Shown here piece after piece: positions 7,293 through 33,664 of a DNA stretch of 35,126 nucleotides; position 1 is the first letter of the stretch; every line of letters starts with the position of its first letter. Source of the DNA: Acidobacteriaceae bacterium (GTDB taxonomy: Bacteria; Acidobacteriota; Terriglobia; Terriglobales; Acidobacteriaceae); contig PKUV01000041.1 of assembly GCA_003131315.1 (NCBI GenBank), positions 24,216-59,341 on the forward strand, in the 5' to 3' direction. A program made the translations under genes and the position numbers. The notes beneath the pieces are model-generated. The model was not told the DNA's origin and did no database searches. It saw only the letters and a list, made by a program, of their open reading frames with translations.

Positions 7293-7318
7293 ATTCGAGG
7301 CTGCTGGAAGATTCCGAT

Positions 7319-8377: not shown

Positions 8378-8410
8378 AGCTTCTCCGATCAACGACAACC
8401 TGGATCTAAA

Positions 8411-12146: not shown

Positions 12147-12998
12147 CTAAAAACTACACGAGGACTGAATCCTTTGCTTCTTGGTGCTGAAATAGAAACC
12201 AGAGTAGTAAGGCACGTTCAAGTCGGGAAACAGAGGCATTCGCATTCTCAATTCAGGCGCCTTCCAACGATCGATCAAAGCGTAGCCTGAAGCAGAGAAC
12301 TCACTCACGATCTCGTTAAGACTTCGTACAATGCATGGTACTGCATAGGAGCCGTTGTCCTGAACCGTAAAAAAAGCGGGACCTTGATCACGAACGGGAG
12401 TTCGGTTGATCACTATGTGATCAGGCAGTTCAGGAAACTGGTTCACAAACTCGGCAATGCTCTTCTCCCAATAATGAAAAGCCCCCGAAATCAATAGGAC
12501 TTGGTCGCGCGAATACTGCTCTAATGAAGTCGTAAACCCCAGACCGCGGCCACCCATTTCTCGGGCCAACTCCCGCCCCGTGCTGACGGTTTTCAGCAGA
12601 TCAAAGACTGTCCATTTGACAGAGTCGGATGTGTCAACCAAGTAGTTGAAGTAGCTGTAGAAAAGATTCCCTACATGTCCTCCGAAATCAAAAACCCTGA
12701 TCTCTCTCGAGCAGATTCGACTGATCCAATAAAGCGCTGCATAGTCACTGGGACGCAAAGTCTTTGACAGTTCGAGATGTAGCTTGATGTAGTCCGGATG
12801 ATCATGGCCCGCATATGCGGTCCTACGCGCCGCAATCCACGCCTCGTCAAACGATGAAAACACCGCGCGAGGATAACTTAACCTGTTTAAGAATCTGACG
12901 CCGACATTCGACTGAGCTAGTCGAATCAGCAAAGACCGGAACGGTTCAGAGCTCACCCCCTCGATCATCGCCTCTCGCGCGCTCATACCATCTCTCAC
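12147..12998 (-). CDS. Putative SAM-dependent methyltransferase (TIGR04325-like)
   Basis: 283 aa. The SAM-binding Rossmann loop is visible as VFDFGGHVGNLFYSYFNYL (about 102-120), followed by VKWTVFDLL (acidic strand-2 position), LLISGAFHYWE and DHIVINRTPV, the pattern of the small TIGR04325 family of putative methyltransferases found in polysaccharide and secondary-metabolite clusters. Start is a GTG at 12998; an ATG 12 bases further in is possible. It lies 75 bp after the thioesterase gene on the same strand, so it could tailor the peptide (N-, O- or C-methylation) or modify an exopolysaccharide sugar. Base composition looks lower in G+C than the NRPS genes (a 60-bp line near 12361 is about 47%), suggesting a different origin. 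Confidence 0.72.
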   Translation of the reverse strand: MRDGMSAREAMIEGVSSEPFRSLLIRLAQSNVGVRFLNRLSYPRAVFSSFDEAWIAARRTAYAGHDHPDYIKLHLELSKTLRPSDYAALYWISRICSREIRVFDFGGHVGNLFYSYFNYLVDTSDSVKWTVFDLLKTVSTGRELAREMGGRGLGFTTSLEQYSRDQVLLISGAFHYWEKSIAEFVNQFPELPDHIVINRTPVRDQGPAFFTVQDNGSYAVPCIVRSLNEIVSEFSASGYALIDRWKAPELRMRMPLFPDLNVPYYSGFYFSTKKQRIQSSCSF

Positions 12999-13073: not shown

Positions 13074-16000
13074 TTAACGAAGCGTTCTGGAAATCGTGAC
13101 TTGAAGCGCATTGGCCAAGTGCTCGACAAACGGCTCCAGCAACATGCCCGCAGGATAAACCGGGAGCGTCAGAATTTCGTGGCCCCCGCGCGCCAGCCGG
13201 CTCCAGTCGCCTTCCGCTGGGCCGTATTTCGCATACTGCCTCATCGGACGGAAATCGGTGACGACACCTTCGTAGGGCTTCGCCTGATAGACCACGCACG
13301 CCCGGTCGTTGATCCGCCACATCTCCGCGAGGAGAAGGGATTCCGGCTTGTGGCCCGATTCCTTCGCCAGGAATCTGCCGAACATCATGCCTTTCCAGAT
13401 CTTCGAGCGGCTCCGCAGGACTTTAATTTTCTCGTCAAAGAACTTTTTCTTTTCGCCAGCATTCAGCAGCAGAAAGTTCCTGCCGTGAAACCTGACTTTC
13501 TGTCCGAGGTGCCGTACTTTTCTCCAGGCGGTATCGGATGGGATGTTGCACCAGTTCATGGTGTCGAACAAAGCGAGCAGCGCGACTTCCTCACCCTGCG
13601 CTTTCAGTTGCTGCGCCATCTCGTAGGCGACAGTACCGCCCAGGCAGTAGCCGCCCAGATGATACGGGCCATGTGGCTGGACGCGGCGAATCTCATTCAC
13701 GTAAAGAGACGCCATCTCCTCGATCGTTGTCAGGCATGGACGTTCGCCGTCGAGGCCCTGGGCCTGCAAGCCATAGAAAGGCTGATCGGAGCCGAGATGC
13801 CGCGACAGGCCGCGATAGATCAGCACATTTCCGCCGCCGCCGTGGATGCAGAAAAACGGAGGCCGAGAGCCGTTTGGCTGGATCGCTACCAGCGGGGACC
13901 AGTCCGACGAAGCAGTGTCAGTGCGCAGAACCTTGGCCAACTGCGCGATGGTCTGAGCCTCAAAGAGGATGGAGAGTGGAAGTTTGCGCTGAAATTCTTT
14001 GGTGATCTGCGCGAACAGGCGCACCGCCAGGATCGAAGTGCCACCGAGCTCAAAATAGTTCTGATTCAGACCAATCGGGCTGGTGCCGAGGAGGCTCTCC
14101 CAGATTTTTTGAAGCTTTCTCTCGGTCGGGTCAGCGGCACGGCGAGGCTCAGCTTCTTTGAAGGTCGGCTCGGATGGACGCGGGAGCGGGGCGCGTCTTG
14201 AAATCTTGAGCTCGTGCATGCGCGCCTCGGGTACATCGCGCATCAGTTCGAGAACGTCCCGATAGTCCTCAAGAACCAGCCGAATGGTCGCCGCGTCAAA
14301 GAGGTCGGGGTTGTACTCGAGTTGGGCCCGCAAACCTTCCTTGCGGTCCAACAGGCCCATCTGCAGTTCAAAGTGTGTGCCCAAACCAAAGTCCGGGAGC
14401 GGCGTAACCGTCAGGCGATTGAGTTCCCGTGGCCGCAGGAAAGCAAGCTGATAAAAGAAGTAGCATTGCGATAGCGGATTCCGGCCACGGACGGAGCGCA
14501 CGTCCAAGTGATCCATCAGAACTTCAAAAGGCAACTCGGCATGATTCAGCGCGTCGAACGTGACGTCGCGCACGCGAGCCAGCAGTTCTTTTAGCGTGGG
14601 GTCGCCGGCCAGATTCAACCGCAAAGTAACCGGACTCGCGAAGGGCCCGATGAGTCCTTCGGTTTCGGGTTTGCGATTCGCCACGGGCGACCCGACGATG
14701 ATTTCCTCCTGCTCAGCGTAGCGACAGAGCAAGGCCGCGTAACCGGTCAGCAAGACCATGAATACAGTTGCGCCTTCGGACCGGCCCAACTCCTTCATGG
14801 ATCGCGTCAGGTCCTCTGGGAGCAGCAGCGTTTCCATGGCGCCGCGAGACGCGGGACGATTTTTCGGCGGCCGATCGGTGGGAAAGTTGAGCACCGGCAA
14901 CGGCGGCTTGAGCTGCGTTTTCCAGAACTCGAGCTCTTCGTTGGCCGCGTCGGACTTGAGCCACTCCTGCTGCCAGTGCGCGAAGTCCCCGTACTGGATG
15001 GGCAAAGGCGGCAAGGAGGGTGCTTCGCCCTTGGAGGTGGCTTCGTAGATTGTCCACAGATCGCGTTGGATGACGTTCTGCGAAAATCCATCGACGATGA
15101 TGTGATGGGTGGTGAGGATCAGCACATGCTCTTCGGGCGCAAGCCGGAACAAACGGGCGCGGAGCAGCGGTCCTTCCGCAAGATCGAATGGAGCACTGGC
15201 TTCGGCGCGAATCGACTCCCACAACTTCTGTTCCCGGTCAGGCGCCGCGACGAGTTCAAGCGAGGACACGGGCAGGTCGATTAATTGGGAGGAGGGTTGG
15301 GAGGGGTGGATGATCTGGATTAACTCTTCACCTTCCTTCTGGAAAGTGGTACGCAGGGACTCATGCCGGTCGACGAGCAATCGAAGACTGTCTTCCAGAT
15401 GGGCGAGGGAGACCTCACCGGTAAGCCGGACGCAGGCGCGCATGTGGAGCGCCGGGTTCCCGGGCACAATCTCTTCGAGTGCGAAGAAACGACGCTGCGC
15501 CGCGCTGGCTGGCAACCCGAAAGAGTCAACTGTGGTCGCTTCGGGTGCGGCAGGAATATTGTCCACTTTAAATTTAGAAACCGCTGGTGCTACCGCCGCA
15601 GCGGCCGCTCCTAACGAACGCGGAGTGGAAGACGCCGCACCGCCGGATTTTGAATGCGCGGGCACGGCGGTTGCCGGCCGCTTTTGCCTCGCCAGCGATG
15701 CGCCTTCAGAAACGGGAAATGAGGAGAGAGGCCGATTCGGATCTTGCACGATATTTTCGAGCAAGCCTTTGAAGTCAGCCAGAAGGCGCGTAATCGTGCC
15801 CGCCTCAAACAGATCGGTGTTGTATTCGCAAGCCAGGCGCCATCCCTCATTGCGAAGCACGAGGAAGACATGCAGATCGTATAACGCGCCCTGGGACTTG
15901 GACGGGATCACCGTCAATTTGATCCCGGCAAATTCCTGCGCCTTGACCGGATCGCGCTGGCAGATAAAGTTGAGGCGGAACAGTGTGTGGTGACTCGGAT

Positions 16001-17108
16001 AATCGTCGGGCCGCAGTTCCTTGAGCACCTGCTCGTAGCGAACATTCTGGTTCGCGATCGATTGCAGACCGACTTCCTGAACTCGCTGCAGCAACTGCGG
16101 GAAAGTCGGATTGCCCGATAGATCGAGGCGGAGAACCACGGTGTTGATGAACGGGCCGATGACGGACTCGAGTTCCACGCTGTTACGTCCAGCGATCTGC
16201 GTAGCAGCGCCAAAATCGATTTGACCAGTGTACTGAACCATCAGCACGCCGAGAGCAGCCAACATCGTGTTGAAGAACGTGGCACTCTCGCGATTTCCGA
16301 TTTCTCGCACGGCATCGGTTAGCACCACCGGCAGCAGTAAGGAAGTAATGGTTGCTTCGAAGGTTGGGGACGCCTGGCGCGGCCGGTCTGGCGGAACGTC
16401 GAGCAGGGGCAGGTCTTTCAGTTGCTCTTTCCAATAGGCAAGTTCTTTTTGAACCGCGGGAGATTCGGACTGCTCCCGCTGCCAGACCGCATAGTCTCCG
16501 TATTGAATGGTGAGTTCGGGAAGGACTGGGTCTGCATTACGGGAGTAGGCATCGTAGAGCGCTCCGAGTTCATTCGAGATCAAGCCGATCGACAAGTAAT
16601 CGATCACCGAATGGTGAGGAGTGACGAGCATGATGTGCTCGTTGTCTTCAACTCGCAACAACGTCACCCGGAAAAGCGGGCCAACCGCCAGGTCAAAGCG
16701 CCAACGAGCTTCGTTAAAAGAGAGCCGATCGACTTCCGCATCCCGCTCTGGTTTTGGAAAGTGGCGCAGGTCGACGACCGGAACCTCGATTTCGAGCGCA
16801 GACTTGATGACCTGCGCGGGCTGCCCGTCGAACTGCCCATCTACGACCGTGAACGTGGTGCGCAGCACTTCGTGACGCTGAACGATCTGGTTGAAAGCTC
16901 GCTCCAGAAGCGCAGGGTCAAGCGGCCCTTGCAAACGGAAGCGGACGGGCACGCTCCATGTGGGATTGCCTGGATTCATGCGGTCCAGCGCCCAGAAGCG
17001 CTCTTGTACGAGCGAAGCCGGCAGGACGAAAACTTCTTCGGGCTCGAGATTCGGCGGCTCGGGATTCGCCGGGGGCATAACTGGTTTCGTGTTTTCCAAA
17101 GTACTCAC
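13074..17108 (-). CDS. NRPS protein: C-C-PCP-TE (no adenylation domain)
   Basis: 1344 aa, terminal protein of the assembly line. Domain order: condensation C1 about 24-465 with HHSVIDY at 165-171 (both His and Asp170 present, but Tyr replaces the usual Gly); Ala/Ser/Pro-rich linker 466-525; condensation C2 about 526-965 with intact HHIIVDG at 668-674; peptidyl carrier about 985-1065 with phosphopantetheine Ser1025 in ELGGTSIL; thioesterase about 1085-1340 with oxyanion region FFCIHGGGG, nucleophile elbow GYCLGG (Cys1155 where Ser is usual), Asp1182 and His1310. No A domain is present, so the carrier must be loaded in trans or only receive the chain. Its ATG overlaps the previous stop by 4 bp, implying coupled translation. 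The tandem C domains may differ in role (epimerisation-like, ester-forming or inactive). Confidence 0.93.
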   Translation of the reverse strand: MSTLENTKPVMPPANPEPPNLEPEEVFVLPASLVQERFWALDRMNPGNPTWSVPVRFRLQGPLDPALLERAFNQIVQRHEVLRTTFTVVDGQFDGQPAQVIKSALEIEVPVVDLRHFPKPERDAEVDRLSFNEARWRFDLAVGPLFRVTLLRVEDNEHIMLVTPHHSVIDYLSIGLISNELGALYDAYSRNADPVLPELTIQYGDYAVWQREQSESPAVQKELAYWKEQLKDLPLLDVPPDRPRQASPTFEATITSLLLPVVLTDAVREIGNRESATFFNTMLAALGVLMVQYTGQIDFGAATQIAGRNSVELESVIGPFINTVVLRLDLSGNPTFPQLLQRVQEVGLQSIANQNVRYEQVLKELRPDDYPSHHTLFRLNFICQRDPVKAQEFAGIKLTVIPSKSQGALYDLHVFLVLRNEGWRLACEYNTDLFEAGTITRLLADFKGLLENIVQDPNRPLSSFPVSEGASLARQKRPATAVPAHSKSGGAASSTPRSLGAAAAAVAPAVSKFKVDNIPAAPEATTVDSFGLPASAAQRRFFALEEIVPGNPALHMRACVRLTGEVSLAHLEDSLRLLVDRHESLRTTFQKEGEELIQIIHPSQPSSQLIDLPVSSLELVAAPDREQKLWESIRAEASAPFDLAEGPLLRARLFRLAPEEHVLILTTHHIIVDGFSQNVIQRDLWTIYEATSKGEAPSLPPLPIQYGDFAHWQQEWLKSDAANEELEFWKTQLKPPLPVLNFPTDRPPKNRPASRGAMETLLLPEDLTRSMKELGRSEGATVFMVLLTGYAALLCRYAEQEEIIVGSPVANRKPETEGLIGPFASPVTLRLNLAGDPTLKELLARVRDVTFDALNHAELPFEVLMDHLDVRSVRGRNPLSQCYFFYQLAFLRPRELNRLTVTPLPDFGLGTHFELQMGLLDRKEGLRAQLEYNPDLFDAATIRLVLEDYRDVLELMRDVPEARMHELKISRRAPLPRPSEPTFKEAEPRRAADPTERKLQKIWESLLGTSPIGLNQNYFELGGTSILAVRLFAQITKEFQRKLPLSILFEAQTIAQLAKVLRTDTASSDWSPLVAIQPNGSRPPFFCIHGGGGNVLIYRGLSRHLGSDQPFYGLQAQGLDGERPCLTTIEEMASLYVNEIRRVQPHGPYHLGGYCLGGTVAYEMAQQLKAQGEEVALLALFDTMNWCNIPSDTAWRKVRHLGQKVRFHGRNFLLLNAGEKKKFFDEKIKVLRSRSKIWKGMMFGRFLAKESGHKPESLLLAEMWRINDRACVVYQAKPYEGVVTDFRPMRQYAKYGPAEGDWSRLARGGHEILTLPVYPAGMLLEPFVEHLANALQVTISRTLR

Positions 17109-20100
17109 TTCACCGTCTCTCTTTCAGGAACCTTGAGAACGGTCTTGACCCGGTAGCGGTCGCGGGAAACCGCAACGATGCTCGGGGCTGCTTTTGCGGG
17201 GGAAACGGCGCCACTTTCGAACTGCGCGAGGACCGCAGCAATGGTACGGTGCTTCAGGATCAGGGCGGGCGGAATTTTCATGCCCACCTTGCCCGCGCGG
17301 GCCACAATCTGGAAAATGTGCAACGAGTCCGCGCCCAACTCAAACAGGTTGTCCTGGATGCCGACTCGCTCCAGGTGCAGCACTTCGGCCCAAATGGCGG
17401 CCAGCGTCTTCTCCTGCTCGGTGCGCGGGGCGACGTATTCTTTCTGGCGCGCGGCGCGTCCCGTGTCGGGAGCAGGCAGCGCTTTGCGGTCGATTTTTCC
17501 ATTCGGAGTGAGTGGCATCGCGTCCAGGCGCACGACGGCCGACGGCAGCATGTAGTTGGGCAATTTGCCGGTGAGCGCCTCGCGCACGGTTGCGACCGTA
17601 ATTGCCTGCTGGTCGCTGGTGACGTAGGCCACCAGGCGCTTATCGCCCGGGATGTCCTCACGCACGATCACCACCGCTTCGCGAACGCCGGGGTAACGTG
17701 CCAGCGCAGTTTCGATTTCTCCGAGCTCAATGCGGAACCCGCGCAGCTTGACCTGGTGGTCCAGCCGTCCCAGGAACTCGATGGCGCCGTCGGGCGCGCG
17801 GCGGACCAGGTCGCCGGTTTTGTACATGCGGGCGTTAGTGTTCGAGCCCGTGTTCGGTCGGAAGGGATCGAAAACGAATTTTTCCGCGGTCAACTCGGGC
17901 CGATGGAAATATCCGCGGGCCAGTCCGTCGCCGCCGATGTGGAGTTCCCCTGCGACTCCGATGGGGACCAACTGCTGGGCCGCATCGAGAACGTAGAACT
18001 GGGTGTTGTCAATGGGCGGACCGATGGGCACCGGCTCCTCGCCGGCTTTGACTTCGAGCGTCGAGGACCAGATGGTGGTTTCGGTCGGTCCGTACATGTT
18101 CCAGACCGAATGCGCGCGGCGAACCAGCTCGTTCGCCAGATCGCGGGGAAAGGCTTCGCCTCCGCAGAGAACTTTGAGAGCTGGCTTCCCTTCCCAGCCG
18201 GCTTCGATCAGGAGCTTCCAGGTCACCGGCGTTGCCTGCATGACGGTGGCTCCCGAACTTACGATCCGACTGAGCAGGAGACTGCCGTCCGCAGCCGCCT
18301 CGCGGCTGGCGATCACAAGTTTCGCACCGACCGCGAGCGGCAGAAAGAGTTCCAGTCCTGCGATGTCGAACGAGAGTGTGGTCACGGCAAGCAAGGTGTC
18401 GTTCGCCTTCAGGCCGGGCTTCTTGCTCATCGACAGAAGCAGATTGACGACGGCGCGATGCGAAATCTCGACCCCTTTGGGCTTGCCAGTCGAACCCGAA
18501 GTGTAGATGACGTAGGCAAGATCATCTGCGGTGGACGCGGTGGGCGGGGCATCGTTGGAGTGTCGCGCAATGGTCGGCCATTCGGTGTCCAAGAAGACGT
18601 GATGGGCGGCACCGATGTTGACGGTCTTGAACAAACTTTCCTGCGTCAGCAGAACCGGGACGCTGGCATCGTTTAGCACGAACGAAATGCGTTCGGCCGG
18701 ATAAGTGGGATCCATGGGAACGTAGGCGCCGCCAGCCTTCATCACACCCAGCAGGGCGACGATCATGTCTAACGAGCGCTCGACGAACATGCCGACCATC
18801 ACGCCGGGTTTCACGCCGGTGCTTCGCAAGTAGTTGGCCAGTTGGTTGGCACGGCGATCGAGATCGCGATAGGTCAGCTGTTCGCTCTCGAACACAGCCG
18901 CGATCGCATCCGGCGTCTTCCGGGCTTGGGCTTCGAACAGTTGATGAACACAAAGGTTGCGCGGATAGTCGGCTGCGGTTTGATTCCAGTCGACAGCCAA
19001 CTGGCGGCGGCCGGCTTCGTTGAGCAGGGGCAGACGAGATACGGGTTGATCCGCATTTTCGACCATGCCCAACAACAGCGTTTCGTAATGACTCAACCAG
19101 CGGGCAATGGTGGATTCGTCGAAGATCCCGGTGTTGTAGTCGCAGTCGAGCGTGAGCCCGTCTTTCGACTCGACGACGTTCAGGAAGATATCGAAGTTGA
19201 CGAAACTTTTTGGATTGGGATCGGCTTCGGCCTGGAACCCATCGAATTGCATGTCGCCGCCGACGCGCTCGAGGTTGAATTGCACTTCGGTCAACGGCAA
19301 CCGGCTGGGATCGCGCGGAATCTGGAGCTTCCTGACGAGGCGACCGTAGGTGTAGTTCTGGTGCTCATAGCCAGCCAACACTGTCTGCTTCACGTGCTCC
19401 AGGAACTGCGCGGCGGTGGAGTCTGCGGTCGGCTTTCCGCGCAAAGGAATAAAGTTGACGCAGTGTCCCACCAGAACCGCGTCTTCCAAGAGCGACTGCC
19501 CGGCCGTGGGAATTCCGACCACGATGTCGTCCTGACCACTCAAGCGGCTTAAGAGGATCTGGAAGCCAGAAAGCAGAGTGACGAAGAGAGTGCACTTCTG
19601 CTTCGCCCCGAGTTTCTTGATGGCGTTGTAGGCATCGGCTCCGATTCTTGTCCGGTAGGTCGCACCTTTGAATTCCTTCACTGCGGGCCGTGGCCGATCC
19701 GTCGGCAGATCGAGTAAGGGGGCGGGCTGCTGGAATTGATCGAGCCAGAACTTTTCGACGTTGGCCCCTTCCGGCCCGCTCAGGAATTCGCTCTGCGACT
19801 TCGCGTAGGTCGCGAAGCTCATGGGCGAGGGCAAGGTCGAGGGTAGGATAGAGGACTCGCCGCGATTGAGCGCGTTGTAGATTGTGGGAAGCTCGTCGAG
19901 CAGAACGTTGGTGGACCATCCGTCGCACACAATGTGATGCGCGGTGAAGACCAGACACGCGTATCCCGGCTCGATTTTGACAAGTTGCGCGCGAATCATG
20001 GGACCTTCCACCAGGCGGAAGGGCGTGTGCGCATCATCACTGATGATTTGCTTCCAGCGGGCGTCACGTTCCGCCGCACTGAGCGCAGTGAGATCCACGG

Positions 20101-23100
20101 TTGGAATATTGAGATCGAGGTTGGCAGCGAACTTCTGCACCTGACCTTCGTGGATGAAAGTCGCGCGCAGGGCGTCGTGGCGGTTGACGACTTGGCGAAC
20201 GGCGTCTTTGAGCGCCGACTCGTTGACCTTTCCGCGCATGTGAAGGGTGAAGGATTCGTTGTAACTGCAGGACGCATCGTCGCTTAGCTGATCCGAGAGC
20301 CAGACTTCCAGTTGCGGCTCGGTGACGGGAACTTCCTGAGCGAATTCAGAACCGGCCGCTGCTGGAGCCGCCTTCAAGACTGGCGGTTCCGCGTTGGACG
20401 GCTTGGCGAAAAAGCCGGCTGCCTGCATGTCGAATACGCTTTCCTTGAACGCGGCGACAATTTTCTCAAGGTCGGCATCGGTGTGTGCCGTCGAGAGGAA
20501 GCAGGGGAAGCCTTCGAGAATGTAAATCCCCTTTGCTCGCAGGAAGTAATAGAAGAGGCTGGCGAAGCTTTCTTCCACCGGAAGCGCAAAGTAGAAGAAG
20601 CTCGCAAAATGCTCGATGCGCGTAGGAACTTGCTGGAGCTCGAAGAACTCATTGATGGTCTTGACCAGCTTGGCCGTGCGCTCGTTCAACCGCTCCTGCA
20701 AGCCGGAGCCCTGCTGCTCGAAGTGTTGCATCACGGCCTTCATCGCCGCCAAGGTCAGTGGGTGGCGGATAAAAGTGCCCGCGAAGAAAGTGACGCCGAC
20801 CTCAGGATAGGAATCGTCGCCGAAATGCCACGCTCCTCCGTCGAGAGCGTCCATAAATGCGGCTTTGCCGGCGAGGATGCCTATCGGCATGCCGCCTGCG
20901 ACAACCTTGCCGTAAGTGGCGAGATCCGCGCGGACTCCGAAGAGCGCCTGGCAGCCGCCGAGGTGGGCTCGAAATCCAGTCACAACCTCATCGAAGATCA
21001 GAGCCGCGCCCGACTCCTGCGTAATCTTGCGAATCTCCTGCAGGAACTCGCGAGGTTGAAGATGCGGGTGGCGGCTCTGCACCGGCTCGACCAGCACGGC
21101 GGCCAGATCTTTGGCGTTCTGGCGAATCCACTCGACCGATTCCGGTGTGCCGTAGTCGAGCACGACGACGTTCGAGAGACTCTCACGAGGAATTCCGGGC
21201 GCCACCGGGGCGGAGTGCGGAACGCCGCCCTTCTTCACGCTCTTGACCAGCACTTCGTCAAACATGCCGTGATACGCGCCAGCGAATAACACAACCTTAT
21301 TGCGGCCGGTAACGGTGCGTGCCACCCGCAGCGCGGCCATCACGGCTTCGGAACCCGTGTTGCAGAAGGTCATGCGCTCGTTGCCCGTCATCTGGCAGAA
21401 GAGCTGCGCGACTTCGCCGGCCAGTGGCGTCTGCGGGCCGATTTCGAACCCTTCATGCAGTTGCTTGGCAATCGCCTGCTCGACGAAGTCTGGACGATGC
21501 CCCAGCATGATGGGGCCAAACCCGTTCAGGATGTCGATGTATTCGTTGCCGTCCACGTCCCATAGCCGCGATCCCTGGGAGCGGTCGGCGACGATGGGAT
21601 AAACGATCTCCTTCCACTGCGAGCGGAAACCGGAAACGACGCGCGGGTCGGCAAGCGCGGCGCGATGCTTCTCGGTGCTGCTCTTGGACTTCGCGGTGCG
21701 CCGCGTATACAAGTCGATCAGATTCCTCAGGCCTTCCTGCTGCCGCGGCGTTACATTACACGATGTACCTTTTTGAGGCGGCTTGTACGGCCCAAAGGGT
21801 TTGAACTCTTCCTTCGCGCTCGCGGCGGCAACAGGTGCGGCCGGCGCCGCGATTGGCGCAATGACTGGAGCGGCTGATGGAGAGGAAGGCTGGGGCGCAA
21901 CCTTGGCAGGCGCAACGGCAGCAGGGGCAGCCGAAGCCGGTGCAGTCGCACCGCCACGCAACGCTTCCAATTGTTTTGCAAAGAGTTGATTCATCGCCAG
22001 AAGTTGTTCACGCATCAAGCGTTCAACCGGAGATTCAGACATGGCACCATCTCCATTTCCACTTACGGGGGCGTTGCCCATTGAACTGTTGGCCGCCGGT
22101 GTGGCCGACATGGCAATGACAGGAGCGGCCTGAGCAGTCACCGCGGGTGGCGCTGCTTCCGCCAGAACGTCCGCTGGGAGCTTGCCATCAAGGTACTCGG
22201 CGAGCGCATTCATGGTCGACAGGTCGCCGAGCAACTGGCGAAAGGTAATCTTCAAGCCGAACTTTCCATGCAGCGACTGAGTCACCTGGGTCAGGAAAAG
22301 CGAGTCGAAACCCATTTCGAGGAAACTTGTGGAGCCGTCGGCCTGAGAAAGATCCACACCAGAAAGATCCTCGAAAATCTCGCTGAGAACCTTGGCAATT
22401 CGTGTGGACCGGGATAGGGGGAGGGGGGAGGTTGCGAGGGTTTGCGAATTCACGTTCACCTGTGTGTTTTCCTCCGAAGCCGGGGCTTCAGCTGGGGTTT
22501 CAGCAAAGCGTGGAGCCGCGACCGGTGCGACCAGCAGCGCTGCCGCAGATTCTTCGAGTATGGGAGCATCGAGCCAATAACGTTTCCGCTCGAAAGGATA
22601 GGTTGGGAGCGAGATACGCTGCCGCTTCTCCCCGCCATGAAGGCTGCGCCAATCCGGCTGCGCTCCGGCGAGCCAGAGTGCGCCGAGCGAGTTCATCAGG
22701 CTTGCGGCGTCTCCCTCGCCAGAAAAACTGTCAGCCAGCGAAGAGAGAATCGGTTGATCGGGGGACGCGCCGGCCTGCTGCCGAGCGAGCGTGCCCAAGA
22801 CGTTGCCTGGACCCACTTCGAGAAGAATGCTGCTGGGCTTCTTACGAAGTTCGGCAAGAGCGGAAGCAAACTGCACGGGCTGGCGGAAGTGACGCGCCCA
22901 ATACGCAGGATCGGTGGCTTCCTTCTCGGTGATCCAGGTTCCGGTTACGCCGGATATGTACGGAATCTGCGGCCGGCCAGGACGCACTTTGCCAACAAGC
23001 TTGGTGAACGGTTCGACGATGGGGTCCATCATCGAGGAGTGAAAAGCGTGGGAGGTCACCAGACGGCGGCTAACAATCCCGTCCGTCCCAAGCTTCTTCT

Positions 23101-25249
23101 CAAATTCTTCAATCGCATCGAAGGGGCCAGCGACGACACATAGAGACGGCGAGTTGACCGCGGCGAGCGAAAGCTTTCCGTTCAGCCGCGTTCGGAGTTC
23201 CTCTTCTGGCAGCCGCACCGACAACATGCCACCGCGCGGCAGGTCCTGCATCATTTTTCCGCGCGCTGCCACCAGTCGCAGGGCGTCCTCAAGCGAAAAC
23301 ACTCCGGCCATGCAGGCGGCAGCGAACTCTCCGATACTGTGGCCGAGCATGGCGGCAGGCCGGATTCCCCAGCTCATCCAGAGCTGCGCCAGCGCGTATT
23401 CAATAGTGAAAATCGCAGGCTGCGCGATGACGGTATCGGTTACGCGCCGGTTCGCTTCTTCGGATGCAACCTCTCCCGGATAGAGCAACGATCGAAGATC
23501 TTCTCCGAGCGGAGCGCGAAGGATTTCGGCGCACTGGTCGACACTCTCACGGAAGACTCGCTCGCTTTCATACAATTCGCGGCCCATGTTTGGATGCTGC
23601 GACCCCTGGCCCGGAAACAGGAAGGACACCATGGGGTTGTCGAGAGGCCTCAAACGAGTGGGCAACCGTTTCCGGTCGCGCTGCGACAGGCTTGCTATCG
23701 CCTCGGGCACATCCCGCGCGACGATGGCGCGCCGGCAAGGGAATGGACGACGGCCCATTTGGAGTGTCCAGGCAGCGTCGGCAAGATTCAGTCCCGGATG
23801 CGCGCTTAGATATTGGCCAAGGTTCGCAGTGGCATTCTCCAGCGCCGCTTCCGAACGCGCCGACAACACCAGCAACTGCAACTGCAAAGATCGCGCCGAA
23901 GGAGAAGACTGCCGGGCTGGCGCCTGCTCAAGAACCACGTGCGCATTGGTGCCGCCAACTCCAAAAGCACTCACGCCTGCGCGTCGAGGACCGTTTTCCT
24001 GCTTCCACTCTTTGCGGTTTGAGTTGAGGAAAAAAGGACTGTTTTCGAGATCGAGCTTCGGATTCGGTTTTTGGAAGTGCAGCGTCGGCGGAAACACGCC
24101 GTCGCGGACCACGTGCGCGGCGTGAATCAGTCCCGTAATGCCCGCGGCAATATCCAAATGACCGACATTGGTTTTAGCCGTACCGACGGCACAGAATTGT
24201 TTCGCCTTGGTGTGGGCGCGAAACGCTTTCGTGAGCGCGGCCATTTCAATGGGATCGCCGAGCGGCGTTCCGGTTCCGTGTGCTTCGACGTACCCGATGG
24301 AGTCCGGAGATACGCCAGCCAGCGCCTGTGCCATAGCAATGACGTTGGCTTGACCCTCAACGCTCGGCGCGGTGTATCCGACCTTATCGGAGCCGTCGTT
24401 GTTCGTCGCAAAGCCGCGGATGACCGCGTAGATCGAGTCGCCGTCGGCCACGGCGTCTTCGAGCCGCTTCAGCACGACGACTCCCGCGCCGCCACCAAAG
24501 ACGGTGCCATTCGCGTTCTCATCAAACGCGCGGCAATGGCCGTCGGGCGAAACCATCCCGCCTTCCTGATAGAGGTATCCACGTTTCTGCGGGAACGTAA
24601 TGGAAACTCCTCCGGCCAAGGCCATGTCGCACTGGTAGGTTTGCAGCGCTTGCGCCGCCTGGCAGACGGCGAGCAGCGAGGTTGAGCAACCAGCCACCAT
24701 GGTGAAGGCCGGTCCCTTCAAATTCAATTTGTAGGAAACGCGAGTCGCGAGAAAATCGATGTTGCTGCCGAGGGTTACCGGATAATTGGCGACCTGGTAG
24801 CCGGTGACGTAGTCTTCGATAAAGCGCCGGTCGCGGCAGACGTGGCGCAAGAAATAGGTACTGGGACTGCACCCGGCATAGACGCCCGTCATGGCAGGAC
24901 AGTTCAGCGGATCGTAGCCGGCGTCCTCAATCGCCTCCCAACAGCATTCGAGAAAGATGCGCTGTTGCGGGTCCATCAACTCCGCCTCTTTGGGATAAAC
25001 GCTGAAAAAAGCCGCATCAAACAGATCCACGTCGTCGAGGATCGGCCTCGCTCGCACGTAACTTGGATCGGCGGCAGCGGCAGCGGCGTTCGCCACCTCA
25101 AGTTCTTCCACCCGGAACTGAGCGATGGACTCAACCCCCGCCAACTGGTTTCGCCAGAACTCGGCGACCGTGCGGGCGCCCGGGAAACGGCCAGACATTC
25201 CGACGATCGCGAGAGCGTTACTGAGATCTTGCGTATCGTGATCCCTCAT
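17105..25249 (-). CDS. Hybrid PKS/NRPS: KS-AT-ACP-aminotransferase-C-A-PCP
   Basis: 2714 aa. Ketosynthase 10-440 (Cys188 in VAGCSTS, His324 in EAHGTGT, His364 in NVGHLD). Acyltransferase about 540-890 (GHSIGE, Ser638; HAFH 734-737, which predicts malonyl-CoA). ACP about 945-1022 (Ser983, GFDSL). Ala/Pro linker with a short helix about 1075-1100. PLP aminotransferase of the glutamate-1-semialdehyde type about 1160-1610 (CNTGSEAVMAALR, AYHGMFDE, IFDEVVTGFR, Lys1448 in TYGKVVAGG). Condensation 1635-2070 (HHIVCDG 1771-1777). Adenylation 2100-2595 with TSGSTGKPKG; specificity positions read D-I-L-Q-L-G-M-I-W-K, one step from the published glycine code DILQLGLIWK. PCP with Ser2642. No KR, DH or ER: the beta-ketone should be aminated, as in mycosubtilin/iturin-type synthases. 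Overlaps both neighbours by 4 bp. Confidence 0.95.
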   Translation of the reverse strand: MRDHDTQDLSNALAIVGMSGRFPGARTVAEFWRNQLAGVESIAQFRVEELEVANAAAAAADPSYVRARPILDDVDLFDAAFFSVYPKEAELMDPQQRIFLECCWEAIEDAGYDPLNCPAMTGVYAGCSPSTYFLRHVCRDRRFIEDYVTGYQVANYPVTLGSNIDFLATRVSYKLNLKGPAFTMVAGCSTSLLAVCQAAQALQTYQCDMALAGGVSITFPQKRGYLYQEGGMVSPDGHCRAFDENANGTVFGGGAGVVVLKRLEDAVADGDSIYAVIRGFATNNDGSDKVGYTAPSVEGQANVIAMAQALAGVSPDSIGYVEAHGTGTPLGDPIEMAALTKAFRAHTKAKQFCAVGTAKTNVGHLDIAAGITGLIHAAHVVRDGVFPPTLHFQKPNPKLDLENSPFFLNSNRKEWKQENGPRRAGVSAFGVGGTNAHVVLEQAPARQSSPSARSLQLQLLVLSARSEAALENATANLGQYLSAHPGLNLADAAWTLQMGRRPFPCRRAIVARDVPEAIASLSQRDRKRLPTRLRPLDNPMVSFLFPGQGSQHPNMGRELYESERVFRESVDQCAEILRAPLGEDLRSLLYPGEVASEEANRRVTDTVIAQPAIFTIEYALAQLWMSWGIRPAAMLGHSIGEFAAACMAGVFSLEDALRLVAARGKMMQDLPRGGMLSVRLPEEELRTRLNGKLSLAAVNSPSLCVVAGPFDAIEEFEKKLGTDGIVSRRLVTSHAFHSSMMDPIVEPFTKLVGKVRPGRPQIPYISGVTGTWITEKEATDPAYWARHFRQPVQFASALAELRKKPSSILLEVGPGNVLGTLARQQAGASPDQPILSSLADSFSGEGDAASLMNSLGALWLAGAQPDWRSLHGGEKRQRISLPTYPFERKRYWLDAPILEESAAALLVAPVAAPRFAETPAEAPASEENTQVNVNSQTLATSPLPLSRSTRIAKVLSEIFEDLSGVDLSQADGSTSFLEMGFDSLFLTQVTQSLHGKFGLKITFRQLLGDLSTMNALAEYLDGKLPADVLAEAAPPAVTAQAAPVIAMSATPAANSSMGNAPVSGNGDGAMSESPVERLMREQLLAMNQLFAKQLEALRGGATAPASAAPAAVAPAKVAPQPSSPSAAPVIAPIAAPAAPVAAASAKEEFKPFGPYKPPQKGTSCNVTPRQQEGLRNLIDLYTRRTAKSKSSTEKHRAALADPRVVSGFRSQWKEIVYPIVADRSQGSRLWDVDGNEYIDILNGFGPIMLGHRPDFVEQAIAKQLHEGFEIGPQTPLAGEVAQLFCQMTGNERMTFCNTGSEAVMAALRVARTVTGRNKVVLFAGAYHGMFDEVLVKSVKKGGVPHSAPVAPGIPRESLSNVVVLDYGTPESVEWIRQNAKDLAAVLVEPVQSRHPHLQPREFLQEIRKITQESGAALIFDEVVTGFRAHLGGCQALFGVRADLATYGKVVAGGMPIGILAGKAAFMDALDGGAWHFGDDSYPEVGVTFFAGTFIRHPLTLAAMKAVMQHFEQQGSGLQERLNERTAKLVKTINEFFELQQVPTRIEHFASFFYFALPVEESFASLFYYFLRAKGIYILEGFPCFLSTAHTDADLEKIVAAFKESVFDMQAAGFFAKPSNAEPPVLKAAPAAAGSEFAQEVPVTEPQLEVWLSDQLSDDASCSYNESFTLHMRGKVNESALKDAVRQVVNRHDALRATFIHEGQVQKFAANLDLNIPTVDLTALSAAERDARWKQIISDDAHTPFRLVEGPMIRAQLVKIEPGYACLVFTAHHIVCDGWSTNVLLDELPTIYNALNRGESSILPSTLPSPMSFATYAKSQSEFLSGPEGANVEKFWLDQFQQPAPLLDLPTDRPRPAVKEFKGATYRTRIGADAYNAIKKLGAKQKCTLFVTLLSGFQILLSRLSGQDDIVVGIPTAGQSLLEDAVLVGHCVNFIPLRGKPTADSTAAQFLEHVKQTVLAGYEHQNYTYGRLVRKLQIPRDPSRLPLTEVQFNLERVGGDMQFDGFQAEADPNPKSFVNFDIFLNVVESKDGLTLDCDYNTGIFDESTIARWLSHYETLLLGMVENADQPVSRLPLLNEAGRRQLAVDWNQTAADYPRNLCVHQLFEAQARKTPDAIAAVFESEQLTYRDLDRRANQLANYLRSTGVKPGVMVGMFVERSLDMIVALLGVMKAGGAYVPMDPTYPAERISFVLNDASVPVLLTQESLFKTVNIGAAHHVFLDTEWPTIARHSNDAPPTASTADDLAYVIYTSGSTGKPKGVEISHRAVVNLLLSMSKKPGLKANDTLLAVTTLSFDIAGLELFLPLAVGAKLVIASREAAADGSLLLSRIVSSGATVMQATPVTWKLLIEAGWEGKPALKVLCGGEAFPRDLANELVRRAHSVWNMYGPTETTIWSSTLEVKAGEEPVPIGPPIDNTQFYVLDAAQQLVPIGVAGELHIGGDGLARGYFHRPELTAEKFVFDPFRPNTGSNTNARMYKTGDLVRRAPDGAIEFLGRLDHQVKLRGFRIELGEIETALARYPGVREAVVIVREDIPGDKRLVAYVTSDQQAITVATVREALTGKLPNYMLPSAVVRLDAMPLTPNGKIDRKALPAPDTGRAARQKEYVAPRTEQEKTLAAIWAEVLHLERVGIQDNLFELGADSLHIFQIVARAGKVGMKIPPALILKHRTIAAVLAQFESGAVSPAKAAPSIVAVSRDRYRVKTVLKVPERETVK

Positions 25250-27153
25250 GGAAGTTGCCCTACTTTGTCTTTGTCTTTGCGCTGTTTCGCCATCGCGTTC
25301 CGCTGCTTGCGGATTCTCTCGGCGATCTCGGAACTAGCTACCTGCGATGCTTGCCCGTCGAGATAGTCGCTCAAAGCGCGGATGGATGGGAATTGAAACA
25401 AGTCGGTTACCGAAAACCTGCGATTCAGTGTTTGTTGCAGTTCCGCGTGGACTTCCACGAGGAGAATGGAGTCGCCGCCGAGGTCAAAGAAATTGTCAGT
25501 CGGTCCCACATGCTCAACTGCGAGCACCTTCTTCCAAACCGACGAGATGACTTCTTCAGTTCCCTCTTTCACTGCGGTGGCGCCGCTTTCCGGTTCGCTC
25601 CGCGCCAAAACCGATGCCGGAAGAAGACTGCGATCCACCTTGCCGTTCGCGTTCAAGGGCAGCGCTTCCATCATCAAGAACGAGGACGGGATCATATAGG
25701 CAGGAAGAAAGCTTTCGAGAGCCGCCCGCAATTGGTGCGCTTGCAGCGGCTGGCTATTTTCCGGAACGTTCTCCGGAACGTTTTCCGGAACTATGTAGGC
25801 TGCGAGTTTTTTCTGACCGTCGAGATCGATCGCATCCACCACGGCCTGCTTCACGCCGGGCTGGCGGAGCAAAGTCGCTTCGATTTCGCCGAGTTCGATT
25901 CTCTGTCCATTGATCTTGATTTGTCGGTCGATCCTGCCGAGGAACTCGATCTCGCCGTCCGGCATGAAGCGTCCTCGGTCTCCAGTGCGGCAGATACGCT
26001 CTCCCGTTCGGGGATGGATCGCGGTGCGGGCACGGGTCTGCTCGTCGTTGCGCCAATATCCTTTCAGAAGACCAACGCCGGAACAGCAGAGCTCGCCGGG
26101 TTCCCCGCGTGGGCAGTCTTGCAATTGTTCGTCGAGCACGTAGTAGCGGGTGTTCGCAATCGGATGTCCGTAGGGGATGCTGTTCCAATCCGCCTGAACA
26201 TTCTTGACCGGGTACCAGATATTCCAGACCGTGGTCTCGGTGGGTCCTCCGACGCTGACAACTTGGACATCTCCGAAGTGGGCACGGATACGGCCCGGCG
26301 CACTGAGCGCAATCCAATCACCGCCCAGGAAGGCTAAACGAAGACGGCCCTTCAACGCGAGCTTCCGCGCGGATGCATGGACGAGCAGCATTTCCATAAA
26401 CGCCGGAACGGAGTTCCACACGGTCACACGGTACCGGTCGATCAGTTCAACCCAATGATCGGGAGAACGCGTCCCGTCGCGATCGGGCATGACGATGGCC
26501 CCGCCGGCGGCCAGCAATCCGAAGATGTCATATACAGACATATCGTGGTGCAAAGCGGTGACGGCAAGCACGCGATCATCCGGCCCCACGCCAAATGTGC
26601 GGTTCGTTTCCAGGATGCAATTCACCAGCCCGCGATGACCAATCATCACGCCCTTTGGCTTCCCAGTCGAACCGGAAGTGTAGAGAACGTAGGCAACATC
26701 GTCGGGAGACTGCACGCGAACAAGCGGAATGGAACCGTCGGCGCCGGATTCGTCATGGTCAACACAAAACCGAGTCACGCCGGACGGCCACGACAACTTC
26801 TCATCCAGCCAGGACTGAGTGAGAACGATCTCGACCTCTCCGTTTTCGAGCAGGTACGAAAGGCGGTCCGGTGGAATATTCGGATCGATGGGCAGGTAAG
26901 CCGCGCCCGACTCGAGAATGCCCAGCACGGCAGCGATCTGTTCCCAACCTTTGTCCATCACGACCGCGACCAGGGTGTTAGGCCGGACTCCAAGCGCCCG
27001 CAGCCGGTGGCCCAGACCTCGCGCCCGGAAAAGTAAGTCGGCATAGGACAGCGTTCGCGTGGACCAGATGACGGCTGGACGCTCAGGCGTGCGCGTGGCC
27101 TGTTCGATGAACAGGTCCTGAATGAGACAGTCGGAAATGGCTGATTTAGTCAA
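25246..27153 (-). CDS. NRPS loading protein: adenylation-PCP
   Basis: 635 aa. Adenylation domain about 10-510: LTQSW, YVLYTSGSTGKPKG at 155-168, TALHHDMSVYDIFGLL, VSVGGPTETTVW, YRTGD-like CRTGDRG, and catalytic Lys505 in NANGKVDRSL. A carrier domain follows at about 530-600 with Ser562 in DLGGDSIL, then a basic helical tail (IAERIRKQRNAMAKQRK) that may dock to the next protein. Positions of the specificity code read D-M-Y-N-F-G-V-V-W-K; the DxYN..xxWK frame resembles cysteine-type codes (DLYNLSLIWK), but half the positions differ, so no substrate is predicted. There is no condensation domain, so it fits chain initiation for the KS that follows. Start is a TTG without a strong ribosome site. 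The stop overlaps the next start by 4 bp. Confidence 0.92.
   Translation of the reverse strand: MTKSAISDCLIQDLFIEQATRTPERPAVIWSTRTLSYADLLFRARGLGHRLRALGVRPNTLVAVVMDKGWEQIAAVLGILESGAAYLPIDPNIPPDRLSYLLENGEVEIVLTQSWLDEKLSWPSGVTRFCVDHDESGADGSIPLVRVQSPDDVAYVLYTSGSTGKPKGVMIGHRGLVNCILETNRTFGVGPDDRVLAVTALHHDMSVYDIFGLLAAGGAIVMPDRDGTRSPDHWVELIDRYRVTVWNSVPAFMEMLLVHASARKLALKGRLRLAFLGGDWIALSAPGRIRAHFGDVQVVSVGGPTETTVWNIWYPVKNVQADWNSIPYGHPIANTRYYVLDEQLQDCPRGEPGELCCSGVGLLKGYWRNDEQTRARTAIHPRTGERICRTGDRGRFMPDGEIEFLGRIDRQIKINGQRIELGEIEATLLRQPGVKQAVVDAIDLDGQKKLAAYIVPENVPENVPENSQPLQAHQLRAALESFLPAYMIPSSFLMMEALPLNANGKVDRSLLPASVLARSEPESGATAVKEGTEEVISSVWKKVLAVEHVGPTDNFFDLGGDSILLVEVHAELQQTLNRRFSVTDLFQFPSIRALSDYLDGQASQVASSEIAERIRKQRNAMAKQRKDKDKVGQLP
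25757..25792 (-). repeat. Three tandem 12-bp repeats inside the adenylation gene
   Basis: The unit TTTTCCGGAACG occurs three times in a row with one or two changes (25757-25768, 25769-25780, 25781-25792). On the coding strand it gives VPEN VPEN VPEN at residues 455-466 in a surface loop of the small C-terminal adenylation subdomain. It keeps the frame, so the copy number could vary without breaking the enzyme. Confidence 0.7.
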
Positions 27154-27345: not shown

Positions 27346-28716
27346 CTATCGTGAGCTAACCGCCAAGGGCGCCGCGGTGAGTGATAACACCAACCGGCCA
27401 TCCTTCTCGCTGGCATACGCAATCGAAGCTCGCTCTTTGCCTGCGCCCTCGATTCGCAACTGCCCGTCTTCTTCGACGAGCGCCATTTCCGAGCGTTGTC
27501 TCCACCACGTGTTCACTTCACCGGGAGTGGTAACCCAAAGATTTTTTTCGGCTTTCAGTTGCACCAGACGAGCCAGCAGCCCCTCGTAGGTATTTCTGGC
27601 CCGCGCGCTGGTGATGTAATCCGGATGAATGACGACACTGATCAGGCCATGTTTTTCCATGATGAGCTCGATCTGGCGCTCCCAAAGAGTGGTCGAGTAG
27701 TCATTCAGGATATGAAACAAGGTGTAGTCCTGCGTCGTGGTCACCGGTATTTCCAGGACTTTGCCGACAAAGTATGGCATCACGGTGCAGCAGCCGCCCC
27801 GTTGCGGATCGAGGTGCGCGACGTTCGGAACCGACATGTCGTATTCAAAATCGAGCAGGTCATACCAGAGCTGGTTTCGATAGAGCACTCCGGCTCGAAA
27901 ACCCGCCGCTCCAAACTGCTTGCCATACGCATTAATCTTGGCCGCGCGCTCGACAAAGCGTTCCCGGTCCCGGAACAAGTGTCCATCATGATTCAGATCG
28001 TGGACGACAACCTCGAAACCACGATCCCAAATCGACTGCAGGAATGCCGGGGTCACGTGATAGCGTTCCTCCGGGATGACCTGGAATGATCCCTTGATCC
28101 CAAAAGAATCGTTGACGTCCATCAGCATGCGGCAAAGATCCACGCCGAGCGGTGTCTCCACGTCGTGCGTCATCAGGGCACAACTGGAAGCGCCCTCTGG
28201 CCAGAACCAGATGAACGGAATCTGTTTCAGGTTCTGCGCCCGGAGCGACAAGAGCAACACATGCTCCAGAAGGTTGTCCACCGTCCGGTCGACTGGCCAC
28301 TGCGGAAATGGAATCTTTTCCCAGCCCCGCAAGCGTATTTTTTGGAGATGCTTCCGAATCCACACCGGGAGGAGTGGGCGAACAAAGTAATACAGGCTCA
28401 GCAACCAGGAGTTTGCGTCTCTGTTGCGCCGGTCTTGCGCGTACATCTCCCAACGAAGACCGTCGACGACCTGTGACACGTCAAAAGGCAGGCGGGCCGT
28501 TCCATTGTCGGCGTGCACATCCTGAAGCACGTCCCAGAGTGGTTCCGTCGGAGAAGCCGCCGGTTCCTGCCCGCAACACTGGCCGTAGAGCGTGTCCTCC
28601 CCAAACCGAAAATACCCGCTCTTCTCCGAGAGCACGCCGCTCAGCGCAATGCGAGCGTAGCGCTCGGGGCACTTGTAGTATTGGCTCAGACAGTTCATTG
28701 ATCCAGGACTCTTCAT
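27346..28716 (-). CDS. Polysaccharide deacetylase-like (NodB fold) protein
   Basis: 456 aa (a start at the ATG at 28698 is equally likely). The first 165 residues are of unknown fold. The NodB-type domain then begins at CALMTHDVETPLG (motif 1, Asp185), with IKGSFQVIPEER, VVVHDLNHDGHLF (metal-ligand His region, 239-246), AAGFRAGVLYRN (motif 3) and SVVIHPDYI near 400. A beta-rich C-terminal extension of about 50 residues follows. Family members remove N- or O-acetyl groups from polysaccharides using a divalent metal; no signal peptide is visible, so it may be cytoplasmic or act on a lipid-linked precursor. It lies directly upstream of the NRPS genes and downstream of the flippase, in line with exopolysaccharide assembly. 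Confidence 0.82.
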   Translation of the reverse strand: MKSPGSMNCLSQYYKCPERYARIALSGVLSEKSGYFRFGEDTLYGQCCGQEPAASPTEPLWDVLQDVHADNGTARLPFDVSQVVDGLRWEMYAQDRRNRDANSWLLSLYYFVRPLLPVWIRKHLQKIRLRGWEKIPFPQWPVDRTVDNLLEHVLLLSLRAQNLKQIPFIWFWPEGASSCALMTHDVETPLGVDLCRMLMDVNDSFGIKGSFQVIPEERYHVTPAFLQSIWDRGFEVVVHDLNHDGHLFRDRERFVERAAKINAYGKQFGAAGFRAGVLYRNQLWYDLLDFEYDMSVPNVAHLDPQRGGCCTVMPYFVGKVLEIPVTTTQDYTLFHILNDYSTTLWERQIELIMEKHGLISVVIHPDYITSARARNTYEGLLARLVQLKAEKNLWVTTPGEVNTWWRQRSEMALVEEDGQLRIEGAGKERASIAYASEKDGRLVLSLTAAPLAVSSR

Positions 28717-33633: not shown

Positions 33634-33664
33634 CACCTTTGCACGCCCGCGAGGCAAGTTGACA

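What the first reader, a model, noticed from the sequence alone, without database searches (positions are those of the whole stretch)
13074..27153. Compact three-protein NRPS/PKS line that should make a beta-amino-containing peptide
Three genes, each overlapping the next by 4 bp, give A-PCP / KS-AT-ACP-AMT-C-A-PCP / C-C-PCP-TE. Seen in the sequence: all active-site residues of KS, AT, ACP, PLP aminotransferase (Lys1448) and C-A-PCP, and no ketoreductase. Known: in-line aminotransferases of this type turn beta-ketoacyl thioesters into beta-amines in mycosubtilin/iturin-type systems, which start from a fatty acid. Here the chain seems to start from an amino acid on a separate A-PCP, so amination after malonate extension would give a 3,4-diamino-acyl unit linked to glycine. 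This starter arrangement without fatty-acyl ligase is unusual.
Basis: partly seen in the sequence, partly recalled or inferred. Interest (0 to 1): 0.75.

Follow-up and report, generated by a model that had tools for sequence, protein, structure and literature searches.

The report
Diamino-peptide enzyme line inside polysaccharide locus
A soil bacterium carries a three-gene enzyme line that should extend an amino acid into an unusual diamino acid joined to glycine; related lines occur in several bacterial phyla, often beside genes for the cell's outer sugar coat, which suggests the product belongs to that coat.

Summary
In detail: A-PCP / KS-AT-ACP-AMT-C-A-PCP / C-C-PCP-TE, 4-bp overlaps, no ketoreductase, catalytic residues present. 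The amino-acid start is well supported: the AMT is MycA-like but groups with AMTs fed by an amino-acid A-PCP; on a 100-row tree feeder type (57 amino-acid, 11 acyl-ligase rows) changes once. "Unusual starter" is not supported: an amino-acid A-PCP directly precedes KS-AT-ACP-AMT in 42 of the 80 nearest loci in other genomes, in several phyla, and a 2013 survey lists such layouts. Starters vary; the next residue is usually Gly. The new result is context. The window is a polysaccharide locus (Wzx, Wzy, glycosyltransferases, exosortase), as is a Rhizobium plasmid locus with the same trio. Polysaccharide genes flank 15 of 23 loci of the window's clade, 8 of 29 of its sister clade, 0 of 20 of the other AMT clade; in same-family genomes 18 of 118 flank ORFs against 2 of 253 control ORFs. 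Best reading: a line making a 3,4-diaminoacyl-Gly(-Gly) unit that works with, and perhaps decorates, an exopolysaccharide. Attachment is not shown; I know of no product.

The parts
25246..27153 (-). Loading protein A-PCP (635 aa, TTG start); A about 25621-27105, PCP about 25360-25551; code DMYNFGVVW(K), substrate not assigned
17105..25249 (-). KS-AT-ACP-AMT-C-A-PCP protein (2714 aa)
24074..25213 (-). KS domain, GCSTS active site
22796..23623 (-). AT domain, GHSIGE and HAFH (malonyl type, recalled)
20390..21652 (-). In-line PLP aminotransferase, Lys1448, NGFG motif of the amino-acid-fed clade
17495..18937 (-). A domain, code DILQLGMIW(K) = Gly (recalled); C domain before it at 18998-20338, PCP after it at 17225-17407
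13074..17108 (-). C-C-PCP-TE protein (1344 aa): C1 15720-17024 (HHSVIDY), C2 14199-15515 (HHIIVDG), PCP 13929-14117, TE 13077-13862 (Cys nucleophile GYCLGG)
12147..12998 (-). TIGR04325-family methyltransferase, 75 bp downstream; relatives lie in rhizobial trio loci
10888..12069 (-). LamG plus VanZ-like membrane protein
6567..7367 (-). 4'-phosphopantetheinyl transferase; such a gene lies by 12 of 25, 11 of 29 and 2 of 30 loci of the three AMT sets
7319..8398 (-). WecB-type UDP-GlcNAc 2-epimerase
5560..6480 (-). Exosortase (Exosortase_EpsH; closest NCBIfam model XrtC, below its cut-off)
27346..28716 (-). 456-aa protein without a Pfam or NCBIfam family; relatives beside the line in L025 and L107
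28838..30436 (-). Wzx-type polysaccharide flippase (Polysacc_synt_3)
30689..32563 (-). Beta-helix, pectate-lyase-like protein
32701..33714 (-). Branch-type glycosyltransferase
33665..35086 (-). Wzy_C / O-antigen-ligase-type protein
489..1280 (+). GT2 glycosyltransferase

Best explanation
A PKS/NRPS line makes a 3,4-diaminoacyl-glycine peptide as part of an exopolysaccharide locus. Proposed steps: (1) the A-PCP protein activates an alpha-amino acid (identity open); (2) the KS takes it from that PCP and extends it with malonate to a 4-amino-3-oxoacyl-ACP; (3) the AMT replaces the 3-oxo group by an amine, giving a 3,4-diaminoacyl-ACP, an 'amino-statine'; (4) C-A-PCP joins it to Gly; (5) the third protein adds one more unit, most likely a second Gly charged in trans because its PCP has no A domain, and (6) the Cys-type thioesterase passes the short peptide to an acceptor. 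I take the acceptor to be an amine of the locus's own polysaccharide precursor; release as a small peptide used with the matrix is the alternative. Shown here: domains, catalytic residues, codes, phylogeny, gene neighbourhood. Inferred: steps 1-6 as chemistry. My odds: amino-acid start with transamination and Gly about 0.75; a functional tie to the polysaccharide locus about 0.65; covalent attachment about 0.3.
For: AMT is MycA-like. Its tree separates amino-acid-fed from acyl-ligase-fed lines with one change over 68 labelled rows. Aligned position 43 is Asn in 49 of 57 amino-acid-fed AMTs and Met in 11 of 11 ligase-fed ones. KS motif CSTS in 45 of 58 amino-acid-fed loci (11 not read, 2 CSSS), CSSS in 9 of 11 ligase-fed (1 CSTS, 1 not read). 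A-PCP and KS in one frame in 29 of 58. Next A domain DILQ-type in 38 of 58, 44 with a looser Gly-like pattern. Terminal modules of L029 and L030 keep a Gly-coded A domain that L031-L035 lack, the basis for the trans-loaded second Gly. Polysaccharide setting: window and its 20-kb flanks; Rhizobium CCGE531 plasmid locus with flippase, sugar transferase, Wzz-domain protein, export protein and pyruvyl transferase round the trio; 15 of 23 and 8 of 29 loci against 0 of 20; Pfam counts without my seeds agree; same-family genomes 18 of 118 flank ORFs against 2 of 253 control ORFs, p 4e-8. The window genes from 35086 down to 10888 run on one strand with gaps of 252 bp or less.
Against: No product, intermediate or expression data. 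The starter code matches none that I recall. 8 of 23 loci of the window's clade and 21 of 29 of its sister clade show no polysaccharide gene in the short flanks held. In each of the 5 genomes sampled farther out, the signal sits on one side of the line only. Other NRPS loci of the host's relatives are not free of such genes: 2 of 14 flank ORFs in L004-L020, 0 of 12 in own-genome L042 and L043. L107, 78% identical in the AMT, has no A-PCP in the 6 kb held upstream. Profile seeds came from the window and kindred loci, rows are related by descent, control loci have shorter flanks and other hosts, so p values are indicative. The TE Cys is not universal: the Thr-coded Acidobacteriota loci have Ser. 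Gly is not universal after the AMT. No gene shown here is a known peptide-to-sugar transferase.
Confidence: 0.6

Rival explanations
1. An ordinary secreted small peptide (signal, protease inhibitor or metal ligand with a 3,4-diamino acid) whose genes merely lie in or beside a polysaccharide island.
For: A TE domain ends the line; Cys-nucleophile TEs of solved lines release small molecules, obafluorin and sulfazecin (PMC11298585, passages); 8 of 23 loci of the clade show no polysaccharide gene nearby; 2 of 14 flank ORFs of other Acidobacteriota NRPS loci were polysaccharide-type too.
Against: The association recurs in Acidobacteriota, Rhizobiaceae, other Alphaproteobacteria and Bacteroidota and is absent from 20 loci of the other AMT clade and nearly absent from 20 arbitrary windows of kindred genomes.
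Confidence: 0.35
2. The A-PCP is not the loading module; the KS is fed by another carrier and the A-PCP serves the third protein's A-less module in trans.
For: L107 lacks an adjacent A-PCP in the stretch held; the last PCP has no A domain in its protein.
Against: A-PCP is in one frame with the KS in 29 of 58 related lines; KS motif and AMT clade follow the amino-acid-fed lines; 4-bp overlap with the KS gene.
Confidence: 0.12
3. The line starts from a fatty or aryl acid, as in mycosubtilin or microcystin lines, and makes a beta-amino lipopeptide or the like.
For: AMT is MycA-like; McyG shows that an A-like loading domain need not take an amino acid (recalled).
Against: Asp at the first code position and amino-acid A-domain relatives (compare); AMT and KS lie with the amino-acid-fed group.
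Confidence: 0.06

Closest known systems
Mycosubtilin synthetase subunit MycA (acyl ligase-ACP-KS-ACP-AMT-C..., layout recalled)
   Same: In-line class III PLP aminotransferase after the ACP that aminates a beta-ketoacyl thioester; nearest solved structures 6kfm, 6kfr, 6kfu
   Different: MycA-type lines start with an acyl ligase; Bacillus AMTs of that kind lie in another clade, with Met, not Asn, at position 43; here the KS module carries its own AT and the next residue is Gly
A-CP-KS-AT-CP-PLP1 assemblies tabulated by Milano et al. 2013 (Pedobacter heparinus, Thiorhodococcus drewsii, Salinisphaera shabanensis)
   Same: Amino-acid A-CP ahead of KS-AT-CP-aminotransferase; predicted products such as Nrp-Mal-Gly-Pk (PMC3870968 Table 2, passages)
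   Different: No isolated product and no polysaccharide context in the passages I saw
Statine-type lines (amino acid + malonate + ketoreductase; recalled)
   Same: Amino acid extended by one malonate
   Different: Aminotransferase in place of the ketoreductase, so 3-amino instead of 3-hydroxy
Cys-thioesterase lines ObiF (obafluorin) and SulM (sulfazecin)
   Same: Catalytic Cys in the terminal TE (PMC11298585, passages)
   Different: Four-membered ring closure there uses a beta nucleophile on the last residue; a terminal Gly has none
Wzx/Wzy exopolysaccharide loci
   Same: Flippase, polymerase-like protein, glycosyltransferases and, in Rhizobium, export genes round the line
   Different: A PKS/NRPS trio in the middle

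Membership tests
MycA-type in-line beta-aminotransferase lines | Class III PLP aminotransferase in cis after the PKS ACP, closest to MycA | tested here: met
   E about 1e-142 to MycA against 3e-60 to the next family, GSA aminomutase; Lys1448 present
Iturin/mycosubtilin lipopeptide synthetases | Acyl ligase loads a fatty acid ahead of the KS | tested here: not met
   Upstream domain is an amino-acid-type A domain with Asp at the first code position; comparison loci: L105 hits fatty-acyl-AMP ligases, L096 a mixed set of 6ulx, McyG and fatty acyl-adenylate ligases
Amino-acid-fed A-PCP/KS-AT-ACP-AMT lines (grouping defined here) | AMT in the amino-acid-fed clade, Asn43, KS CSTS, A-PCP directly upstream | tested here: met
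Amino-acid-fed A-PCP/KS-AT-ACP-AMT lines (grouping defined here) | Product contains a 3,4-diamino acid | not testable with these tools
   needs enzymology or isolation
Exopolysaccharide (Wzx/Wzy) locus | Flippase, Wzy-like protein and glycosyltransferases together | tested here: met
   flanks
Exopolysaccharide (Wzx/Wzy) locus | PKS/NRPS product is bound to the polysaccharide | not testable with these tools
   no chemistry; no transferase identified
beta-lactone/lactam-forming Cys-TE lines | Catalytic Cys in the TE | tested here: met
   GYCLGG, Cys1155; Cys in 18 of 29 TE rows aligned, from 28 chosen loci
beta-lactone/lactam-forming Cys-TE lines | Last residue carries the beta nucleophile that closes the ring | tested here: inconclusive
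   Last PCP has no A domain in cis; Gly expected from kin

The most novel reading that the evidence does not exclude
These lines are dedicated to polysaccharide: a PKS/NRPS assembly line whose Cys thioesterase (or unusual terminal C domain) hands a 3,4-diaminoacyl-Gly peptide to an amino sugar of an exopolysaccharide repeat, giving a cationic, peptide-decorated matrix in several phyla, with the starter amino acid as the strain-specific variable.
Probability: 0.28. Interest if true: 0.85.

Novelty: new variant of a known kind. Interest (0 to 1): 0.56.

Why it matters
If right, 3,4-diamino ('amino-statine') acids, which I know only as synthetic protease-inhibitor units (recalled), have a widespread natural assembly line with a readable sequence signature (AMT Asn43, KS CSTS). 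If the polysaccharide tie holds, PKS/NRPS chemistry serves the biofilm matrix or capsule and not only secreted metabolites, and a search for a free product would look in the wrong fraction. Named strains such as Rhizobium lusitanum SEMIA 4060 (L057) and Rhizobium sp. CCGE531 (L124) carry the trio beside polysaccharide genes, so the question can be tested directly.

Tried and rejected
Fatty-acid or aryl start: rejected on A code, solved-structure relatives and AMT/KS grouping. Chance co-location with polysaccharide genes: made unlikely by two controls but not excluded per locus. Beta-lactone or beta-lactam release: considered because of the Cys nucleophile; not favoured, since the terminal residue should be Gly. 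A search of relatives with the third protein gave mainly other C and TE domains and was followed by AMT searches. Other NRPS loci as a control: L004-L020 held only 14 flank ORFs, 2 of them polysaccharide-type (WecB in L006, GT2 in L019), too few to decide; own-genome L042 and L043 had 0 of 12. Paper searches: the listings (0 papers; 15 of 920 listed; 1; 3; 'aminostatine', 0; 15 of 220 listed; 1; 1) showed me no product, no polysaccharide link and no natural amino-statine; I opened three papers in part (PMC3870968, PMC6256449, PMC11298585) and none of the others. Searches were for MycA and Cys-TE background. The library is open-licence PubMed Central only, so absence there proves little. Structure prediction was not used; it would not show the product.
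Full report
Observation. Pfam gives A-PCP, KS-AT-ACP-AMT-C-A-PCP and C-C-PCP-TE and no ketoreductase. Catalytic residues are present, including AMT Lys1448.

Host. The window is G000:C14:24216-59341 of a 6.0-Mb genome in 194 contigs. The nearest named relative of the AMT is an Acidobacteriales metagenome genome (L107, 78% identity; tree), so I take the host to be an Acidobacteriota member; the genome itself is unnamed. In its phylum 17 of 297 genomes sampled, the host included, have an AMT match at E 1e-80 or better.

Chemistry. The AMT's best solved relative is MycA of mycosubtilin (E about 1e-142), far ahead of glutamate-1-semialdehyde aminomutase (3e-60). The loading protein's best solved relatives are amino-acid A domains of linear gramicidin synthetase, and its code is DMYNFGVVW(K), to which I cannot assign a substrate. 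The A domain after the AMT has DILQLGMIW(K), a glycine code. Code positions and the substrate names attached to codes are recalled, not tool output.

How common is the arrangement? With the window and the earlier loci, 102 loci had a scorable AMT. Feeder types, for the 80: 42 an amino-acid A-PCP directly before the KS, 3 a peptidyl C-A-PCP, 11 an acyl-ligase-like domain, 6 a carrier alone, 5 an A domain cut by the contig end, 4 something else, 9 no KS in view. Over all 102 loci 58 are of the amino-acid type, 29 with A-PCP and KS in one frame and 29 in separate frames. The trio as separate genes recurs in nine loci of one Acidobacteriaceae-level sister genus (same family as the host; L026, L027, L029-L035) and on Rhizobium and Sinorhizobium plasmids (L021-L023). 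Milano et al. 2013 (PMC3870968; abstract and passages seen) already list A-CP-KS-AT-CP-PLP1 layouts. So the arrangement is neither rare nor new.

Does the AMT follow its feeder? A maximum-likelihood tree of 100 AMT domains (2 of 102 left out as too short) puts the window in a 66-row clade (support 91/86) with 55 of the 57 amino-acid-fed rows; the other two (L056, L104) stand apart near the midpoint. All 11 ligase-fed rows lie in a 23-row clade (100/98), inside a 30-row clade (96/87) that also holds polyketide- and most peptidyl-fed rows. The label amino-acid-fed (57) against ligase-fed (11) needs one change. At aligned position 43 the amino-acid-fed rows have Asn in 49 of 57 (C 3, G 1, M 2, S 2), the ligase-fed rows Met in 11 of 11, the peptidyl-fed rows Met in 4 of 5. 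KS motifs: CSTS in 45 of 58 amino-acid-fed loci, CSSS in 2, not read in 11; CSSS in 9 of 11 ligase-fed, CSTS in 1, not read in 1. The ligase label rests on low A-domain scores; it was checked for two of the 11. L105 is clearly fatty-acyl-AMP-ligase-like; L096, a Bacillus iturin-type locus by recall, matches 6ulx (named an amino acid adenylation protein), McyG and fatty acyl-adenylate ligases, so it is an unusual loading domain but less clear.

Variable start, near-constant glycine. Starter codes read as Thr-type (10 of 58), Val-type, Pro-type, hydrophobic in rhizobia, Asp-type and others; the next A domain has a DILQ code in 38 of 58 and a looser Gly-like code in 44 of 58. Terminal proteins differ: C-A(Gly)-PCP-TE in L029 and L030, C-PCP-TE in L031-L035 and most rhizobia, C-C-PCP-TE in the window, L024-L027 and L107. 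This is why I expect the A-less PCP of the window to be charged with Gly in trans; yersiniabactin-type trans loading is the recalled precedent. By a regular expression, several terminal C domains read HQ for HH (rhizobia, L026, L027, L046, L048), so the last condensation may be unusual. The TE nucleophile is Cys in 18 of 29 aligned rows from 28 chosen loci, including the window and rhizobia, and Ser in the Thr-coded Acidobacteriota loci.

Setting. The window reads as a polysaccharide locus: GT2, WecB epimerase, exosortase, flippase, Branch-type transferase, Wzy-type protein, with a TIGR04325 methyltransferase just downstream of the trio. Ten genes from 35086 down to 10888 run on one strand with gaps from -50 to 252 bp. 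The next 20 kb on either side hold further glycosyltransferase, DegT and Wzc-type hits, and beyond them ordinary metabolic genes. In Rhizobium CCGE531 the annotated trio lies among a pyruvyl transferase, GH16, PPTase, DegT aminotransferase, TIGR04325 methyltransferase, flippase, sugar transferase, GT4, Wzz-domain protein and polysaccharide export protein.

Tests of the setting. I made three sets from the tree: window clade (25 loci after leaving out the window and 7 near-duplicate or plasmid loci of a 33-row clade), sister clade (29 of 31 rows, 2 near-duplicates left out) and the other AMT clade (30 loci, ligase-, polyketide- and peptidyl-fed). Six deep or long-branched loci (L045, L053, L056, L087, L104, L123) were in no set. 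Flanking ORFs were scanned against Pfam (123, 110 of 168, and 92). In the first two lists PPTases, glycosyltransferases and other polysaccharide families rank high; in the third no polysaccharide family reaches two members, and methyltransferases, TauD and ABC transporters lead. Per locus, with local profiles and only loci with at least two flanking ORFs: 15 of 23, 8 of 29 and 0 of 20 (window clade against controls p 3e-6; both clades p 1e-4; genes 32 of 121, 13 of 168, 0 of 86). In five same-family genomes, stretches about 10-30 kb from the AMT gave 18 of 118 ORFs, against 2 of 253 in 20 arbitrary 20-kb windows from these genomes and a sixth (p 4e-8; at least two hits in 4 of 10 flank windows and 0 of 20 controls; the hits are on one side of the line in each genome, and 5 of the 10 flank windows have none). 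A weaker control with other NRPS loci of the host's relatives gave 2 of 14 ORFs, and 0 of 12 for two own-genome lines. Profiles were seeded from the window and kindred loci and rows share descent, so the p values are indicative.

Reading. I conclude that the line makes a 3,4-diaminoacyl-Gly peptide from an amino acid and that it works with an exopolysaccharide locus. Attachment to the polysaccharide is the bold form; nothing here shows it. The paper searches named in Tried and rejected gave no product and no such link in their listings; PMC6256449, on a Rhizobium strain with a related locus (hit H21), mentions PKS, NRPS and exopolysaccharide genes only as separate predictions (passages).

Noticed in passing
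L042:8377-16113 (-) and L043:511-8624 (-), own genome: Two further amino-acid-started PKS/NRPS lines in the same genome, both with Gly-type starter codes and no AMT (one a single protein A-PCP-KS-AT-ACP-C-PCP-TE).
   Followed up: partly
window:2238-4154 (+): Protein of ASPM-SPD-2-Hydin/HYDIN Ig-like repeats (Pfam) near the exosortase; possible surface protein.
   Followed up: no
window:9249-10847 (+): B12-binding radical SAM protein between the trio and the epimerase/exosortase genes; below the cut-off of each of the 21 NCBIfam models listed.
   Followed up: no
L024:1059-2315 (+), L025:16520-17740 (-), L107:5099-6322 (+): A gene with a weak ATP-grasp match (scanned for L024 only, just under the Pfam cut-off; the others by clustering) sits directly before the line in the three closest relatives but not in the window; a possible carboxylate-amine ligase.
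   Followed up: partly
L107:1-6406: Closest named relative has no A-PCP gene in the 6 kb held before its KS gene, although the rest of the line is there.
   Followed up: no
L006:4129-5211 (+): A WecB-type epimerase lies next to another NRPS terminal module in a same-genus genome.
   Followed up: no
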